Assembly (NCBI GenBank): GCA_938015595.1
Contig: CALLPI010000006.1
Location: forward strand, 62,001 to 126,000
Direction: 5' to 3'
DNA length: 64,000 nucleotides
Source: an uncultured Saprospiraceae bacterium
GTDB taxonomy: Bacteria > Bacteroidota > Bacteroidia > Chitinophagales > Saprospiraceae
A model generated the notes under the pieces. That model did not search any database and was not told where the DNA came from. It saw only the letters and a program-made list of their open reading frames with translations. Of the stretch, positions 54,630 through 61,267 are shown piece after piece. Numbering within the stretch: the first letter of the stretch is position 1; each line of letters opens with the position of its first letter. The translations under genes were made by a program, and so were the position numbers.

Positions 54630-55013
54630 GTGGAAAAATTGCTGCATTGGTTTTTGTTGTTCGCCTTGGTTTCGTTTTTTGAGACCAACCACTGCGCTAT
54701 ACCTCTCCCCCAGGCCGACAATTACCCTCTGGACACCGAGGAAATAGAAAAAGCTTGCTGCCTTGAACTGGAGGAGACGAGCAAGCTATTGGAAGGCTTC
54801 CAGACGCGTCTCTGCTCCGGCGGCAATTCACCGGCTTTCCAGGGCGGTCTGCCCCATTCGAGCTGTGGGCTGTCTGGGCGCACCTACCTTTTGTCGTTGT
54901 ACGAGCGGCAATATACTGGCGCCAAAAGCTATGCTGCTCGCAAGCGGCAAAAACTCGGTAAACTACCCCTGTATATTCTCTACTGCGACCTCAAGGGATT
55001 TCTGCCTGCCTAA
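54630..55013 (+). CDS. Small cysteine-containing secreted protein, unknown function
   Basis: The 127-residue product begins at a GTG with a clear signal peptide (EKLLHWFLLFALVSFFE, residues 2-18). The mature part has six cysteines among charged residues (two in EIEKACCLELEE) and ends with a KLPLYILYCDLKGF strand. No family is recognised. The in-frame start at 54597 would lie within the promoter at 54568-54599, so the GTG at 54630 is favoured. It stands between the iron-sulfur protein and the SulP operon. Confidence 0.6.
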   Translation: MEKLLHWFLLFALVSFFETNHCAIPLPQADNYPLDTEEIEKACCLELEETSKLLEGFQTRLCSGGNSPAFQGGLPHSSCGLSGRTYLLSLYERQYTGAKSYAARKRQKLGKLPLYILYCDLKGFLPA

Positions 55014-55165: not shown

Positions 55166-56782
55166 ATGGCTATGGAAAAGCCTTCTCAAAACCAGCCTAT
55201 ACTCACCGATGGTTGGGCAGGGCTCAAAGCACATGGCATAACAGACGCTATATCGGGATTCATTGTATTTCTATTGGCATTGCCGCTGAGCCTGGGTATT
55301 GCCAAGGCTTCCGATTTTCCGCCTATTACGGGTTTGCTCACAGCCATCATTGGCGGCATCGTGGTCAGTTTCCTGGCGGGGTCCAGGCTTACCATCAAGG
55401 GGCCGGCTGCCGGGTTGATCGTGATTGTGGCCGGGGCAGTGGCCGATTTTGGCGGAGGCGAAACCGGGTGGAAACTCGCCCTGGGCGCCATCGTAGCAGC
55501 CGGCGTGATGCAGCTATTGTTTGGCGTATTCAAACTGGGCAAACTAGCAGACGTTTTTCCGCTTTCAGCCATACACGGTATGTTGGCAGCCATAGGCATC
55601 ATCATCATAGCCAAGCAAATACCTGTTTTGCTGGACATTGATCCCACCCTAACCAAGGGCAAAGAACCGCTGGAACTCATCCGCGATATCCCCATGTTCC
55701 TTACCAGGCTTGACCCCAAGGCTACGCTGATTGGGGTTATCAGTTTGTGGGTCATGATGAGTTGGCATCAAAATCGCAGCAAGTTTTTAAAGTTGATTCC
55801 GGCGCCACTGGTTGTGCTGCTGATTGCTGTGCCGGCGCAGGTACTCATGGATTTTCAGCACACTGAGCCTACCTACGCGCTGGTGCATATTGGCAACCTG
55901 TTGGAGGTAGTGAAAATAAACGTGAGTTTTGCCGGAGTGGCGCAACTGGGCATGTTCGTCAAGTACGTGATCATGTTTGCGCTAGTGGGCACGCTGGAAT
56001 CCTTACTTACGGTGAAAGCCATTGACATGATGGACCCCTACAAGCGCAAATCTAATGCCAACCAGGATCTCATTGCTATTGGCATAGGCAATGTGCTGGC
56101 TGGCATCCTGGGCGGGCTGCCCATGATTTCGGAGGTAGCGCGTAGCTCCAACAATGTGAACAACGGCGCTAAAACCCGTTGGGCCAACTTCTTCCACGGT
56201 TTTTTCATCCTGGTGTTTGTGTTGTTTGCCTCTCATCTCATCGAAATGATTCCCAACACTGCCCTGGCGGCCATGCTCATCACGGTGGGTATCAAGTTGG
56301 CGCATCCCAAGGAGTTTGTCCACATGTTTCGTATCGGCACAGAGCAGTTGGCCATCTTCCTGACCACCATTTTCTTTACGCTGTATGAAGACTTGCTGGT
56401 GGGCATTGCAGCCGGTATGTTGCTCAAGATCGTTATTCACCTGGTGAATGGCGCGCCCTGGAAAAACCTGTTCAAAGCGCCGGTCAGTGTATCTTTCGAC
56501 AACGGTCATTACCTGGTGGAGATAAGCCAGGCTGCCGTGTTTACCAACTGGATAGGTATCAAAAGCCAGTTGGAATCCATTCCTCAAGGCATGGAAGTAA
56601 CGATTGACCTGTCGAAAACCCAACTGGTGGACCACTCCGTGATAGAAAATCTGCACCATTTTGAACACGATTACATGACATCTGGTGGGCGCGTCTTCAT
56701 CCAGGGGTTGGATAACCACAAGCCGCTTTCTCCGCACAAACTCGCCGCGCATAAAAAAGCCAAAAATGGCATACATGGATAA
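55166..56782 (+). CDS. SulP-family anion transporter with STAS domain
   Basis: The 538-residue protein has the SLC26/SulP layout. Helix 1 begins with ITDAISGFIVFLLALPLSLGIA. SFLAGSRLTIKGPAAGLIVIVAGA (helix 3, about residues 72-95) shows the family's substrate region. Ten or more further membrane helices follow, and a C-terminal STAS domain contains VTIDLSKTQLVDHSVIENL (about 475-495). Members carry sulfate, bicarbonate or other anions. Its place 29 bases before dabA suggests bicarbonate (inference). The ATG at 55166 or at 55172 could start it; the difference is two residues. Two hairpins lie upstream. Confidence 0.9.
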   Translation: MAMEKPSQNQPILTDGWAGLKAHGITDAISGFIVFLLALPLSLGIAKASDFPPITGLLTAIIGGIVVSFLAGSRLTIKGPAAGLIVIVAGAVADFGGGETGWKLALGAIVAAGVMQLLFGVFKLGKLADVFPLSAIHGMLAAIGIIIIAKQIPVLLDIDPTLTKGKEPLELIRDIPMFLTRLDPKATLIGVISLWVMMSWHQNRSKFLKLIPAPLVVLLIAVPAQVLMDFQHTEPTYALVHIGNLLEVVKINVSFAGVAQLGMFVKYVIMFALVGTLESLLTVKAIDMMDPYKRKSNANQDLIAIGIGNVLAGILGGLPMISEVARSSNNVNNGAKTRWANFFHGFFILVFVLFASHLIEMIPNTALAAMLITVGIKLAHPKEFVHMFRIGTEQLAIFLTTIFFTLYEDLLVGIAAGMLLKIVIHLVNGAPWKNLFKAPVSVSFDNGHYLVEISQAAVFTNWIGIKSQLESIPQGMEVTIDLSKTQLVDHSVIENLHHFEHDYMTSGGRVFIQGLDNHKPLSPHKLAAHKKAKNGIHG

Positions 56783-56811
56783 TTTCGCAGAACCGAAACT
56801 AAACTAAAGCT

Positions 56812-59385
56812 ATGACCATCCATAAATCATCCCTGAACACCTCATCAAAGGGATTCCAAGAGGAGCAGGTACTGCACCGCTTGGCGCATTACCTGCCCTC
56901 GCAAACCCCGCTCAAGGACTTCATCCACCACAATTCGCTCCATGCATTTCAGGACATGAAGTTCTACGACGCCATTTTCAAGGCTTCCAAGATGTTTGGC
57001 TACCAGGTGACTTTGCAACTTAATGAGTATCGCAAGTTGTTCAAGATTGGTCGCATTCGTCGCGACATTTTGGAGAAACTCATTGTAGAGCGCAAGGGCG
57101 CCGCTCATCTGGAGCATTGGCTGTTTAAAACCCTGAACCAACGGCACGACTACAACATAGACCCCCGTATCGGACGGCTGCGCGCTTGCTGGAAAGAGGC
57201 CTACCACATAGACCTGGACAATCTGGTACAGCCTCTGCTGTTTCGCATGGTGGTCAGTTATCTGGACCAAGGCATTGCGCTTTGGCACTTCCCCTTTGAA
57301 GACAAGGGGCTACTGGCGGCAGTACGGGAGTTGGAAAAACGGAGTTTGGTCAGTTTCTTTAGAACCCGATACGCCCGCACTCTGCTGATGGACGAAACGC
57401 TCACTTTGAAGCAGTTGCTAAATGTAGTGGTGGGCGAAGAATCCTTCTATGAGCAATATCTTTTTGACCAAGCCTTTGCCCATCGCGGCTGGTCGGGCAT
57501 GGTTGCTACACTGGAGCAGCGCCCCGACACCCTGCTGTACCGAAAGCGCATCACGCTCAGGGAATTCATTATGCTGGAGTTGCTCATGGAGATAGACGCG
57601 CTTGACCATGAGTTGGGCAAGGGGCGCTGGCGGCCGTTAGTGAAGGCTGCTCAGCCGGCATCGCTGGACTTGTTTGCCGATGTACCGCTTACGGAGTTTC
57701 ACGAAGTACTTATGATTTGGCAAGATGCTTTTGAATGGAGCTATTACGATGAGGTACTAGCAGGCTTGCAGCAGCTCAAGGGTTTCAAGACGCAAAAAGA
57801 CCCAGATACCACAGAAGAGAGGGTATTCCAGGCTATCTTTTGCATAGATGAGCGAGAGGACTCGCTGCGGCGGCATATTGAAATGACCCAACCCCGCTGC
57901 GAAACCCTGGGTGCGCCTGGTTTTTTTGGCGTAGAGTTTTTCTTTCAGCCTGCCGGCGGAAAGTTTTACGAAAAGCTATGCCCGGTGTCCGTGACGCCCA
58001 AATACCTGATTAAGGAAAAGGAAGCCAAGGGGCATCGCAAGCGCGAGTTACTCTACACCAAGCGTTCGTACACCTTCATACAGGGCTTTTTATTATCGTT
58101 GTCTTTGGGTTTGTGGGCTGCCGTCAAGTTGTTTTTGGACCTGTTTCGGCCCAAGATGAGCCCGGCCATATCCAACGCCTTTGCACACATGCAAATGGAT
58201 GCGGAGTTAATTATTGAAAACCCCGGACCAGATGCTGTGGAAAACGGGCTGCAAATCGGCTTTACCGTGCCCGAAATGGCTGAGCGGGTAGAGCGCTTGC
58301 TGCGCGGCATTGGATTGGTGCAGCATTTTGCTCCGTTGGTATACGTAGTGGGGCATGGCTCCAGCAGCGCCAACAACCCCCATCACGGGGCGCACGATTG
58401 TGGCGCTTGTAGCGGCCGGCCGGGTTCGGTCAATGCCAGAGTGTTTGCCTTCATGGCCAATCATCCTGAAGTGCGTAATACCCTGTACAGCAGAGGTTTG
58501 CACATTCCAGATACTACGCGATTTGTGGGCGCGTTGCACGATACTGCCGCCGATCAGATAGCCTTCTACGACACGCACTTGCTGCCAGAGGCGTTGCTAC
58601 AATTGCACAAGCGCTGTGCTGATGACTTTGAACGTGCCCTGGACCTCAACGCCAAAGAACGCTCGCGGCGCTTTGCCTCTATCAACACCCGTGCCGACAT
58701 CCGAAAGGTGCGCGAGGCCATCCGGCGCCGCTCAGTGTCTTACTTTGAACCGCGCCCGGAGCTGGGGCACGGCACCAACGCCTTGTGCTTTGTGGGGCAC
58801 CGCAGCCTTACCAAGGGCTTGTTTTTGGACCGCCGCGCCTTTATGAACTCCTATGACTATCGCACCGACCCCGACGGCAAATTCTTGTTGGAAGTAATGA
58901 AACCACTACCGCCAGTGTGTGGAGGTATCAACCTGGAATATTACTTCTCCAGGGTGGACAACTACAAGCTGGGCGCTGGCACTAAACTACCGCACAACGT
59001 GATGGGCCTCATTGGCGTGGCCAACAGCAGCGATGGCGACCTGCGCCCCGGGTTGCCGTTGCAAATGATTGAAGTACACGACCCCATTCGACTGCTTATC
59101 CTGGTAGAGCACTACCCAGAAGTTGTGTTGCGCACCATTCGCCAACAACCCGAGTTGTATAATTGGTTCAAGGATGAGTGGGTGCATCTGGTAGCCATTC
59201 ACCCAGATGACAACACTTTCTATTACTTCACAAACGAGCGCTTCGAACTTTACACGCCACTGAAAGACCGCATAGATACTACGCCTGATATATACGCGCT
59301 CATCGAGCAGGCGCAAGAAATGGAGAGCAACTATATCGTGGACGCCACCAAGGAAAACCTTCCGGTACACATTATCACACATTGA
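56812..59385 (+). CDS. dabA: DabA inorganic-carbon accumulation subunit (UPF0753)
   Basis: DabA is the beta-carbonic-anhydrase-like cytoplasmic subunit of the DAB complex, which hydrates CO2 one way and so accumulates bicarbonate using cation flux through DabB. The 857-residue protein fits family length. The zinc ligands expected from the Halothiobacillus protein (two cysteines, Asp and His) correspond to Cys344 and Asp346 in FCIDERED, His515 in VVGHGSSSANNP, and Cys530 in GAHDCGACSGRPG. Their spacing matches that protein (Asp+2, His to Cys 15). The start HNSLHAFQDMKFYDA is also conserved. It lies 29 bases after sulP and 13 bases before dabB. Confidence 0.93.
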   Translation: MTIHKSSLNTSSKGFQEEQVLHRLAHYLPSQTPLKDFIHHNSLHAFQDMKFYDAIFKASKMFGYQVTLQLNEYRKLFKIGRIRRDILEKLIVERKGAAHLEHWLFKTLNQRHDYNIDPRIGRLRACWKEAYHIDLDNLVQPLLFRMVVSYLDQGIALWHFPFEDKGLLAAVRELEKRSLVSFFRTRYARTLLMDETLTLKQLLNVVVGEESFYEQYLFDQAFAHRGWSGMVATLEQRPDTLLYRKRITLREFIMLELLMEIDALDHELGKGRWRPLVKAAQPASLDLFADVPLTEFHEVLMIWQDAFEWSYYDEVLAGLQQLKGFKTQKDPDTTEERVFQAIFCIDEREDSLRRHIEMTQPRCETLGAPGFFGVEFFFQPAGGKFYEKLCPVSVTPKYLIKEKEAKGHRKRELLYTKRSYTFIQGFLLSLSLGLWAAVKLFLDLFRPKMSPAISNAFAHMQMDAELIIENPGPDAVENGLQIGFTVPEMAERVERLLRGIGLVQHFAPLVYVVGHGSSSANNPHHGAHDCGACSGRPGSVNARVFAFMANHPEVRNTLYSRGLHIPDTTRFVGALHDTAADQIAFYDTHLLPEALLQLHKRCADDFERALDLNAKERSRRFASINTRADIRKVREAIRRRSVSYFEPRPELGHGTNALCFVGHRSLTKGLFLDRRAFMNSYDYRTDPDGKFLLEVMKPLPPVCGGINLEYYFSRVDNYKLGAGTKLPHNVMGLIGVANSSDGDLRPGLPLQMIEVHDPIRLLILVEHYPEVVLRTIRQQPELYNWFKDEWVHLVAIHPDDNTFYYFTNERFELYTPLKDRIDTTPDIYALIEQAQEMESNYIVDATKENLPVHIITH

Positions 59386-59398
59386 AACACTCAATTCC

Positions 59399-61267
59399 AT
59401 GAATCAACTGCTTGCCGTCATTGCCGTATGGCCTTTGCTGGGCTTTGTACTGAGCCTGTTGCCTGGTCACAGGCAGGAGAAGGCCATTTTTGCTGCTGCT
59501 ATTGGCACGGTTATTGTGCACTTCGGATTGCTGATTGTTTGGCTGGTATTTTGGGCCGCCCAGGGATTTGCCCATGCCTATTGGAAGGGATTTGACCTGT
59601 ATGCTACTCGTAGTGCGCACTTCACCATTGACTTTTACTTTGACACCTACACGGCGGTATATCTGTTGGTGACGGTGCTGCTCACTTTTGTCATCATGAT
59701 GTTTAGCCGGTACTACATCCACCGGGAAAAGGGTTACAAGCGCTTTTTCAATAACATCCTGTTCTTTTATTTTGGACTGACCATGGTATTGATAGCTGGC
59801 AACCTGGAGACGCTGCTTATCGGCTGGGAGTTTATCGGGGTTACTTCGTTTTTTCTCATCGCCTTTTATCGGGATCGCTACCTGCCTGTGAAGAATGCCT
59901 TGAAGGTAGTGTCTTTGTACCGTATAGCTGACATATTCATGCTACTGGGCATTTGGCTTTACCACCACTACTTTGAGCACAACGTGAGTTTTTTTGAGTT
60001 GCACAACCTGATGCCCAAGGGCGAGCCTTTGGTGCACGACCATTTTTTTGCAGTGGGCATACCTGCGGCTTTCCTGGTGGCGGCACTGGTCAAGTCGGCC
60101 CAGTTGCCGTTTTCGTCGTGGTTGCCCCGCGCTATGGAAGGGCCAACCTCTTCATCGGCTATTTTCTATAGCTCTTTATCGGTGCACATTGGGGTATTTT
60201 TGCTCATTCGTACCTATCCGCTGTGGCAGGAGCAGGCTTGGTTTGAATATGCGCTTATTGTCATTGGCTTGGCTACCAGCATAGTAACTACCCTTATAGC
60301 GCGGGTGCAAAGCACCGTGAAAACCCAGATAGCCTACTCCTCGATTGCGCAAATAGGCCTAATGATGGTAGAGGTGGCGCTAGGCTGGCACACTTTTGCC
60401 TTGATTCATTTTGCTGGCAACGCCTTTTTGCGCACCTACCAACTGTTGGTATCGCCGTCAGTGCTGAGCTACATGATCCATGACCAGTTCTTTCATTTTT
60501 CGCCGCCGCAGCACCACCTTCGCCCTGGCTTCTGGAACCGAGTGTATTGGTCGATATTTGTATTGAGCATCCGGGAGTGGAACCTGGACAGCATCATGTA
60601 CCGATTGTTGTGGATGCCCCTCAAGCGCTTGGGCAACAGCCTGAACTTCATGACGGCCAGGTATGCCGTATATGTATTTTTGCCATTGTACATATTGGGG
60701 TTAGCAGGGGTAGTATTTAGCCTGGCTATGCCTGGCGTGTTGCTCGCCTGGATGCCTGTTTTGTTAGCGCTCATTAGCCTGCTAATGGTAATCAAGGCTT
60801 TTGTTAAGCGCGAAGAGGCCCACAATGCCTGGGTGTTGGTCATTGTGAGCCAGCTGTTTCTGGCACTGGCTATTGCCTACAACGGGCAGTTCGACCCTGT
60901 GCAGATGATCATGTTTTACAGTGGCATCCTGGTATCGGGCGCGCTGGGGTTCCTGGTTTTCTACTATTTGCGGAAAGCTAAAGAGTCATTAAGTTTAAAG
61001 CGTTTTCAGGGGCATTCCTATGAGCGGCCTCGCTTGTCGGTGGTTTTTCTGATTGCCAGTCTTGGGCTGATAGGTTTCCCCATTACCCCCACTTTTATAG
61101 GCGAAGATCTCATGCTGGGGCATATACACAAAAACCAATATTTGCTCACATTTCTCATCGCTTTGACGCTGATTGTGGCCGGGCTGGCCGTCTTGCGCAT
61201 TTATGCGCGCTTGTTCCTGGGGCCGCATCAGGAAACTTACCATGAGATTGCCTATCGGTCGTCATGA
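59399..61267 (+). CDS. dabB: DabB membrane subunit (NuoL/MrpA-like)
   Basis: DabB is the membrane partner of DabA and resembles the proton-pumping NuoL subunit of complex I; it provides the cation coupling. The 622-residue protein has about 14-16 membrane helices. NuoL-type marks are GWEFIGVTSFFLIAFY (about residues 141-156), KSAQLPFSSWLPRAMEGPTSSSAIFYS (about 235-260) and HFAGNAFLRTYQLLVSPSVL. The last helices end with IVAGLAVLRIYARLFLGPHQ. It starts 13 bases after dabA. No other Nuo gene is nearby, which supports DabB over an Nuo subunit. Confidence 0.93.
   Translation: MNQLLAVIAVWPLLGFVLSLLPGHRQEKAIFAAAIGTVIVHFGLLIVWLVFWAAQGFAHAYWKGFDLYATRSAHFTIDFYFDTYTAVYLLVTVLLTFVIMMFSRYYIHREKGYKRFFNNILFFYFGLTMVLIAGNLETLLIGWEFIGVTSFFLIAFYRDRYLPVKNALKVVSLYRIADIFMLLGIWLYHHYFEHNVSFFELHNLMPKGEPLVHDHFFAVGIPAAFLVAALVKSAQLPFSSWLPRAMEGPTSSSAIFYSSLSVHIGVFLLIRTYPLWQEQAWFEYALIVIGLATSIVTTLIARVQSTVKTQIAYSSIAQIGLMMVEVALGWHTFALIHFAGNAFLRTYQLLVSPSVLSYMIHDQFFHFSPPQHHLRPGFWNRVYWSIFVLSIREWNLDSIMYRLLWMPLKRLGNSLNFMTARYAVYVFLPLYILGLAGVVFSLAMPGVLLAWMPVLLALISLLMVIKAFVKREEAHNAWVLVIVSQLFLALAIAYNGQFDPVQMIMFYSGILVSGALGFLVFYYLRKAKESLSLKRFQGHSYERPRLSVVFLIASLGLIGFPITPTFIGEDLMLGHIHKNQYLLTFLIALTLIVAGLAVLRIYARLFLGPHQETYHEIAYRSS

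What the first reader, a model, noticed from the sequence alone, without database searches (positions are those of the whole stretch)
55166..61267. SulP, DabA and DabB in one tight operon
The DAB carbon-uptake pair is known from autotrophs and some heterotrophs. Here a SulP anion transporter precedes it with gaps of only 29 and 13 bases. DabA keeps the expected zinc ligands Cys344, Asp346, His515 and Cys530. A three-part inorganic carbon system in this lineage suggests strong need for bicarbonate, perhaps for anaplerotic carboxylases, or coupling of bicarbonate movement through two transporters.
Basis: partly seen in the sequence, partly recalled or inferred. Interest (0 to 1): 0.7.

Follow-up and report, generated by a model that had tools for sequence, protein, structure and literature searches.

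The report
Bicarbonate transporter joined to CO2-trapping complex
In this heterotrophic bacterium a SulP anion transporter gene sits directly before the two genes of a CO2-trapping (DAB) complex, and the same partnership recurs across Bacteroidota, sometimes as one fused protein, which points to a combined CO2 and bicarbonate uptake machine whose proton path appears to be built differently from the studied DAB complex.

Summary
SulP (55166-56782), DabA (56812-59385) and DabB (59399-61267) lie on one strand with gaps of 29 and 13 bases. Asp346 is probably not a zinc ligand but part of the Asp-Arg dyad.

The adjacency is conserved and specific to one kind of DAB. Bacteroidota carry two DAB clades. 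In clade I (DabB-DabA order) none of 19 distinct loci has a SulP nearby. In clade II (DabA-DabB order, the window's kind) 69 of 75 distinct loci with enough flanking sequence have a SulP within 2.5 kb or fused. Five loci encode SulP-DabA as one protein, one in a single-contig genome. In 28 loci a beta-carbonic anhydrase lies between SulP and DabA.

Clade II keeps the DabA zinc site but lacks the DabA Glu444 and DabB His260/Lys347 that DAB2 needs. Its DabB keeps NuoL-type Glu144 and Lys229 and a C-terminal TM11-13-like segment with a conserved Asp.

Best reading: SulP imports bicarbonate while DabAB hydrates CO2. No activity was tested; the SulP substrate is inferred. SulP beside this gene pair was noted in 2017; I found no report of the fusions, clade specificity or altered proton path.

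The parts
54630..55013 (+). Small predicted secreted or membrane-anchored protein (127 aa from GTG 54630; the longest ORF starts at TTG 54597) with C-terminal motif PLYILYCDLKGF; probable leader gene of the locus
   Evidence: a motif model built from 15 such tails (the window's own among them) matches ORFs upstream of clade II operons in 29 loci at score >=16 and 0 of 6287 ORFs elsewhere; codons vary while amino acids are kept. No Pfam or NCBIfam match.
55166..56782 (+). SulP (SLC26) family anion transporter, type 'd', with a weakly recognisable C-terminal STAS-like region
   Evidence: PF00916 E=7e-68; its group is a supported clade separate from CA-paired SulPs (98); STAS_2 only E=0.003; E278, K284, E323, R326 invariant in its group.
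56812..59385 (+). DabA, clade II: beta-carbonic-anhydrase-like zinc subunit
   Evidence: PF10070 E=2e-218; zinc site and Asp-Arg dyad in 91/91 clade II proteins; the DAB2 Glu444 position is Leu430 here.
59399..61267 (+). DabB, clade II: NuoL/Mrp-like membrane subunit with about 170 residues inserted before a C-terminal TM11-13-like segment
   Evidence: PF00361 E=3e-41; E144, R175, D178, K232, Y257, N341, R345, D570; residues about 536-611 match TM11-13 of Mrp/ND4 proteins; AlphaFold2 model pLDDT 83.

Best explanation
The locus encodes one dissolved-inorganic-carbon uptake system. DabA and DabB form a membrane-energy-driven, one-way carbonic anhydrase that turns CO2 into cytoplasmic bicarbonate. 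SulP imports bicarbonate directly, probably coupled to Na+ or H+. Together they take up both forms and re-trap leaked CO2 for carboxylases of a heterotroph. SulP is probably physically tied to DabA at its cytoplasmic C-terminal (STAS) side. Compared with DAB2, the ion path seems rebuilt: the acidic residue that DAB2 takes from the DabA finger (Glu444) is missing, and a conserved Asp in DabB's own TM12-like segment (Asp570) may take its place. Shown here: gene order, conservation, fusions, residues. Inferred: substrates, direction, coupling ion, physical contact, the Asp570 role.
For: Adjacency or fusion in 69/75 clade II loci against 0/19 clade I loci; in the evenly drawn phylum sample 9/11 against 0/20 loci. 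Five SulP-DabA fusions, one in a single-contig genome. Beta-CA between SulP and DabA in 28 loci. SulP type changed at least 5 times and fusion state 3 times on the DabA tree while linkage stayed. SulP and DabA distances correlate (r=0.45 for the window's type, permutation maximum 0.27). Group-d SulPs are specific: of 11 with >=650 bits in 395 genomes, 9 lie in clade II DabA genomes and 8 are adjacent. DabA zinc site 91/91. A SulP encoded near a carboxysome locus rescues CA-less E. coli, an unlinked one does not (PMC12628692).
Against: No assay. The SulP does not keep most of BicA's ligand positions and belongs to a group without a characterised member that I know of. Residues essential in DAB2 (E444, H260, K347; H343 in most) are replaced in clade II, so energy coupling, even activity, cannot be assumed. 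A neighbouring reversible CA would tend to dissipate a bicarbonate gradient. Six clade II loci lack a nearby SulP. The genome also has a SulP/beta-CA pair elsewhere, so need is not obvious.
Confidence: 0.58

Rival explanations
1. SulP is an anion exchanger that sends bicarbonate out: DabAB (and beta-CA where present) make bicarbonate, and SulP trades it for an external anion such as chloride or sulfate, for anion import or pH control.
For: SulP/SLC26 proteins include exchangers (family knowledge). Group-d SulP carries a TM10 arginine (R326) where BicA has Gly, matching my memory of SLC26 exchangers. Beta-CA next to SulP also suits an exchange cycle.
Against: Spending membrane energy to make bicarbonate and then export it is costly; the SLC26-like Arg is present in all own-genome SulPs examined, so it is not diagnostic.
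Confidence: 0.18
2. Clade II DabAB is not a CO2 hydrator but a cation-coupled bicarbonate or ion transporter, as proposed for MpsAB of Staphylococcus aureus, and SulP supplies or balances the anion.
For: Residues that DAB2 needs for proton transfer are changed in clade II. MpsAB was proposed as a Na+/HCO3- cotransporter and no CA activity was detected (PMC6689103).
Against: Complete conservation of the zinc site and the Asp-Arg dyad in 91 proteins argues for hydration chemistry.
Confidence: 0.13
3. The genes are only co-regulated: an ordinary bicarbonate importer and an ordinary DAB complex expressed together, with no physical or energetic coupling. (This competes with the physical-contact part of the best explanation, not with its function.)
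For: Gene order and strand vary: A-B-S in 11 and divergent in 4 of 69 loci; two unlike SulP types fill the slot.
Against: Five fused proteins; SulP-DabA overlaps or gaps under 30 nt in 12 loci.
Confidence: 0.3
4. SulP moves sulfate or another unrelated anion and its position is accidental.
For: The family is broad in substrate; BicA-type ligands are largely absent.
Against: 69/75 against 0/19, fusions, CA in the same slot.
Confidence: 0.05

Closest known systems
DAB2 (DabA2-DabB2) of Halothiobacillus neapolitanus, PDB 9rd0, PMC13144422
   Same: PF10070 plus PF00361 pair; same zinc site and Asp-Arg dyad; DabB K310, H339, S256 kept
   Different: Distant relative; gene order DabA-DabB instead of the DabB-DabA order of clade I; no finger Glu444; H260 to Tyr, H343 to Asn, K347 to Arg; NuoL-type E144 present; C-terminal TM11-13-like segment; SulP partner
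MpsAB of Staphylococcus aureus, PMC6689103
   Same: Same two protein families in a heterotroph
   Different: No SulP partner reported in the passages read; S. aureus has no CA, this genome has two beta-CAs
COGNAT 'clade C' ybcC operons, PMC5700660 (2017)
   Same: Notes sulfate permease (COG0659) near ybcC when ybcC is upstream of the nuoL homologue; very likely the same arrangement
   Different: Function was unknown then; no fusions, CA, clade statistics or residue comparison in the text read; also mentions NuoM, not seen here
BicA of Synechocystis (PDB 6ki1)
   Same: Same SulP family, E=1e-22 match; acidic TM8 residue and Thr262 kept
   Different: Thr69, Ala301, Gly300, Thr302 not kept; Arg326 in place of Gly; far below the NCBIfam BicA cut-off (140 against 880 bits)
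SulP paired with carbonic anhydrase, and cyanobacterial NDH-1MS plus BicA toolkits
   Same: Combines a bicarbonate carrier with a CO2 hydrator
   Different: Here the hydrator is DabAB and can be fused to the carrier; no RuBisCO in the genome

Membership tests
DAB/DAC family (PF10070 + PF00361 pair) | DabA of PF10070 with adjacent NuoL-like DabB | tested here: met
DAB/DAC family (PF10070 + PF00361 pair) | Zinc site Cys2His and Asp-Arg dyad | tested here: met
   C344, H515, C530, D346, R348; 91/91 clade II
DAB/DAC family (PF10070 + PF00361 pair) | Restores growth of carbonic-anhydrase-less E. coli in air | not testable with these tools
   No experiment
DAB2-type proton path | Glu in the DabA transmembrane finger (E444) | tested here: not met
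   Leu430 in the window; the five commonest residues in 91 clade II proteins are L, I, Q, F, Y; Glu in 16/19 clade I. The local alignment of the finger is less certain than that of the zinc site
DAB2-type proton path | DabB H260, H343, K347 | tested here: not met
   Tyr257, Asn341, Arg345; 83/83, 78/83, 83/83
DAB2-type proton path | DabB K310, H339, S256 | tested here: met
   K308, H337, S253
SulP/SLC26 family | PF00916 membrane domain | tested here: met
   E=7e-68
SulP/SLC26 family | C-terminal STAS domain | tested here: inconclusive
   STAS_2 E=0.003, below curated cut-off
BicA bicarbonate transporter | Thr69, Asp258, Thr262, Gly300, Ala301, Thr302 | tested here: not met
   Ala81, Glu278, Thr282, Ser322, Glu323, Val324; NCBIfam NF050096 140 of 880 bits needed
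MpsAB Na+/HCO3- cotransporter | Na+ dependence | not testable with these tools
   No transport assay
SulP-carbonic anhydrase pair or fusion | Beta-CA next to or fused with SulP | tested here: not met
   None in the window operon; present in 28 related loci and at another locus of the same genome

The most novel reading that the evidence does not exclude
SulP is a true third subunit: SulP-DabA-DabB is one complex that takes up CO2 and bicarbonate together, in which DabA of clade II receives its driving ions through DabB's own NuoL-like second half-channel (Asp570) instead of through a DabA finger glutamate, and SulP transport is energetically or conformationally linked to DabA.
Probability: 0.3. 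Interest if true: 0.82.

Novelty: new variant of a known kind. Interest (0 to 1): 0.62.

Why it matters
DAB complexes are the non-cyanobacterial CO2 pumps and their coupling mechanism was proposed in 2026 from one structure. A large sister clade that keeps the catalytic site but replaces the residues thought to carry the protons is a natural test of that mechanism. The fused SulP-DabA proteins make a direct test of contact between bicarbonate import and CO2 hydration possible. It would also help explain how heterotrophic Bacteroidota secure bicarbonate.

Tried and rejected
Fused beta-CA in long SulPs (734 aa, L030 and L031): rejected, no CA domain in the C-terminal extension. A permuted NuoL order in DabB (middle segment equal to the NuoL C-terminus): not supported; only the C-terminal segment matches TM11-13. 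A structured RNA between the small gene and SulP: z=-1.4, no Rfam match. AlphaFold2 of DabA: low confidence in the finger (pLDDT <50 at 410-457), not used. Structure search placed DabB with NuoL-type chains: about 350 residues at 2-3 A against some chains, over 15 A in full-length alignments. Other phyla could not be sampled evenly; five plasmid DABs from Pseudomonadota, Actinomycetota and Haloarcula all have DabB-DabA order without SulP.

Full report
OBSERVATION. Cys344, Asp346, His515 and Cys530 match the H. neapolitanus DabA2 active site in PDB 9rd0.

SURROUNDINGS. Upstream lie TrkA, TrkH and a CCG-domain protein, downstream MsrB and a LolA-like protein; none has an evident tie. A small ORF before SulP (54630-55013) ends in PLYILYCDLKGF plus four residues. 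A motif model of such tails (15 seeds, the window included, so not independent) matches 29 ORFs just upstream of clade II operons and none of 6287 other ORFs at the same score, and the codons vary under kept amino acids. It has no Pfam or NCBIfam family. A weaker match elsewhere is a HYC_CC_PP family protein. I treat it as a fourth member of the locus, function unknown, perhaps a regulatory leader.

HOST. Locus L042 is a Saprospiraceae UBA2329 contig of 93,513 bases, and genome G571, listed as the same genus as the window's genome, holds DabA on a contig of exactly that length; the two loci are near-identical. The window is therefore most likely from Saprospiraceae. The genome has four SulP genes and two beta-CAs, one SulP/CA pair side by side, no RuBisCO, no PEP carboxylase, and one rhodopsin.

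DISTRIBUTION. In an even draw of 395 Bacteroidota genomes, 30 have DabA. Their loci fall into two kinds. Clade I has DabB before DabA, is about 28% identical to the window and has no SulP within the roughly 16-20 kb read. Clade II has DabA before DabB, is 47-61% identical, and 9 of 11 (window included) have SulP beside it. Hand calculation for 8/10 without the window against 0/20: p about 8e-6, ignoring shared ancestry. A scan of GTDB genomes gave 80 named relatives, nearest first, so biased; an order-level draw added more. After merging near-identical loci, 75 clade II loci have enough flank or are fused; 69 have SulP within 2.5 kb or fused: 28 with SulP upstream and a CA between, 21 with SulP upstream and no CA between, 11 DabA-DabB-SulP, 4 divergent, 5 fused. 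Clade I: 0 of 19. Exceptions are L026, L036, L081, L086, L141 and L148; in the genomes of L026 and L036 a related SulP sits elsewhere.

FUSIONS. L103, L105, L107, L157 and L158 each encode one open frame of about 1380-1410 aa with full SulP and DabA; the junctions printed for the first three show a short linker. L158 is in a 7.5 Mb single-contig genome, so assembly error is unlikely. On the DabA tree fusion state changes three times; parsimony does not say whether these are three gains or gain plus losses. The fusion joins SulP's C-terminal end, cytoplasmic in SulP proteins, to cytoplasmic DabA, which is consistent in topology (family knowledge).

SULP. The window SulP belongs to a supported group ('d') distinct from the CA-paired group. 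In 395 genomes 11 group-d SulPs reach 650 bits; 9 are in genomes with clade II DabA and 8 adjacent. SulP type changes at least five times on the DabA tree: the slot is kept though its occupant changes. BicA ligands (PMC13249358) are mostly not kept: T69 to A81, D258 to E278, T262 kept as T282, G300 to S322, A301 to E323, T302 to V324 (numbering here from the ATG, one less than in that output). So it is SulP, not BicA, and its substrate is inferred from its partners.

ION PATH. DabA zinc site and dyad are kept in 91/91 clade II and 19/19 clade I proteins. The finger Glu444, essential in DAB2 (PMC13144422), is replaced in clade II (mostly Leu, Ile, Gln, Phe, Tyr) and present in 16/19 clade I. 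In DabB, clade II keeps NuoL E144, R175, D178 and K229 in 83/83, which clade I mostly lost, while H254, H338 and K342 (NuoL numbers) become Tyr (83/83), Asn (78/83) and Arg (83/83). Clade II DabB also carries, after about 170 extra residues, a C-terminal segment that matches TM11-13 of Mrp and ND4 proteins (E about 1e-5) with Asp570 kept in 75 of 77 (Glu in the other two); the motif is not found in clade I DabB. In DAB2, Glu444 is described as standing in for the NuoL TM12 charged pair. The pattern fits a swap: acid on DabA's finger in clade I, acid in DabB's own helix in clade II. This is an inference from alignments; the DabA model was poor there.

PRIOR WORK. COGNAT (PMC5700660) already noted a sulfate permease near ybcC when it precedes the nuoL homologue. 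SulP and DAC are treated as separate items of the DIC toolkit in PMC10880623. In the open library searched I found no report of SulP-DabA fusions, of the clade I/II contrast or of the residue swap; most subscription papers were not searchable.

LIMITS. Operon transcription, activity, substrate and contact are untested. Many loci are MAGs. SulP calls use HMMs built here (E below 1e-10, score above 100). Counts are of related genomes, not independent events.

Noticed in passing
window 54630-55013; L027 8209-8649, L049 3606-3962, L120 9569-9934, L148 5626-5982 and others: Small secreted-looking proteins with variable middle and a conserved C-terminal motif ([LR]Y-x-L-[FY]-[HC]-x-[LW]-K) upstream of clade II operons; a similar tail occurs in a HYC_CC_PP protein (L035 14511-14918). 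A short C-terminal motif after a signal-like start could mean a regulatory leader peptide; untested.
   Followed up: partly
L081 10016-14391, L086 9977-14386, L094 9989-14399 (with L071): Clade II DabA-DabB in records named Candidatus Saccharibacteria (one a complete chromosome, CP025011) and Kaiserbacteria, forming one supported DabA group; no SulP nearby in L081, L086 and L094 (L071 has too little flank): possible transfer into Patescibacteria.
   Followed up: partly
L165 7293-17392 (genome G101): A group-d SulP without DabA at the end of a complex-I-like cluster (NuoL/M-like proteins, a NuoC/D-like protein, a ferredoxin/NuoB-like protein), followed by a porin-like protein.
   Followed up: partly
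L032 14974-16320, L035 3819-5147, L047 4548-5843, L116 8636-9988, L117 8605-9978: Outer-membrane-type proteins of about 430-460 aa recur beside SulP; the two scanned with NCBIfam (L032, L035) have a weak match to the porin ExtI. DUF2490 proteins also recur (L045, L027).
   Followed up: partly
L030 5850-8054, L031 12415-14619: SulP proteins of 734 aa with a C-terminal extension of about 200 residues without a Pfam match.
   Followed up: no
L038 5935-8190 (own genome, contig C5): A second SulP directly followed by a beta-carbonic anhydrase in the same genome.
   Followed up: partly
L014 and L032 (genome G076): One genome carries both DAB clades, so they are not simple replacements of each other.
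   Followed up: no
SulP alignments, window K284 and E323: Group-d SulPs have Lys and Glu where CA-paired SulPs have Glu and Val next to the substrate helices (37/37 and 43/43): candidate specificity or coupling difference.
   Followed up: no
L037 9215-10051: A DabA fragment of about 280 aa covering only the C-terminal part of the family, no DabB nearby: likely a decayed copy.
   Followed up: no
own genome G000:C1:26348-27004: A microbial rhodopsin gene, which could supply proton motive force to bicarbonate uptake in the light.
   Followed up: no
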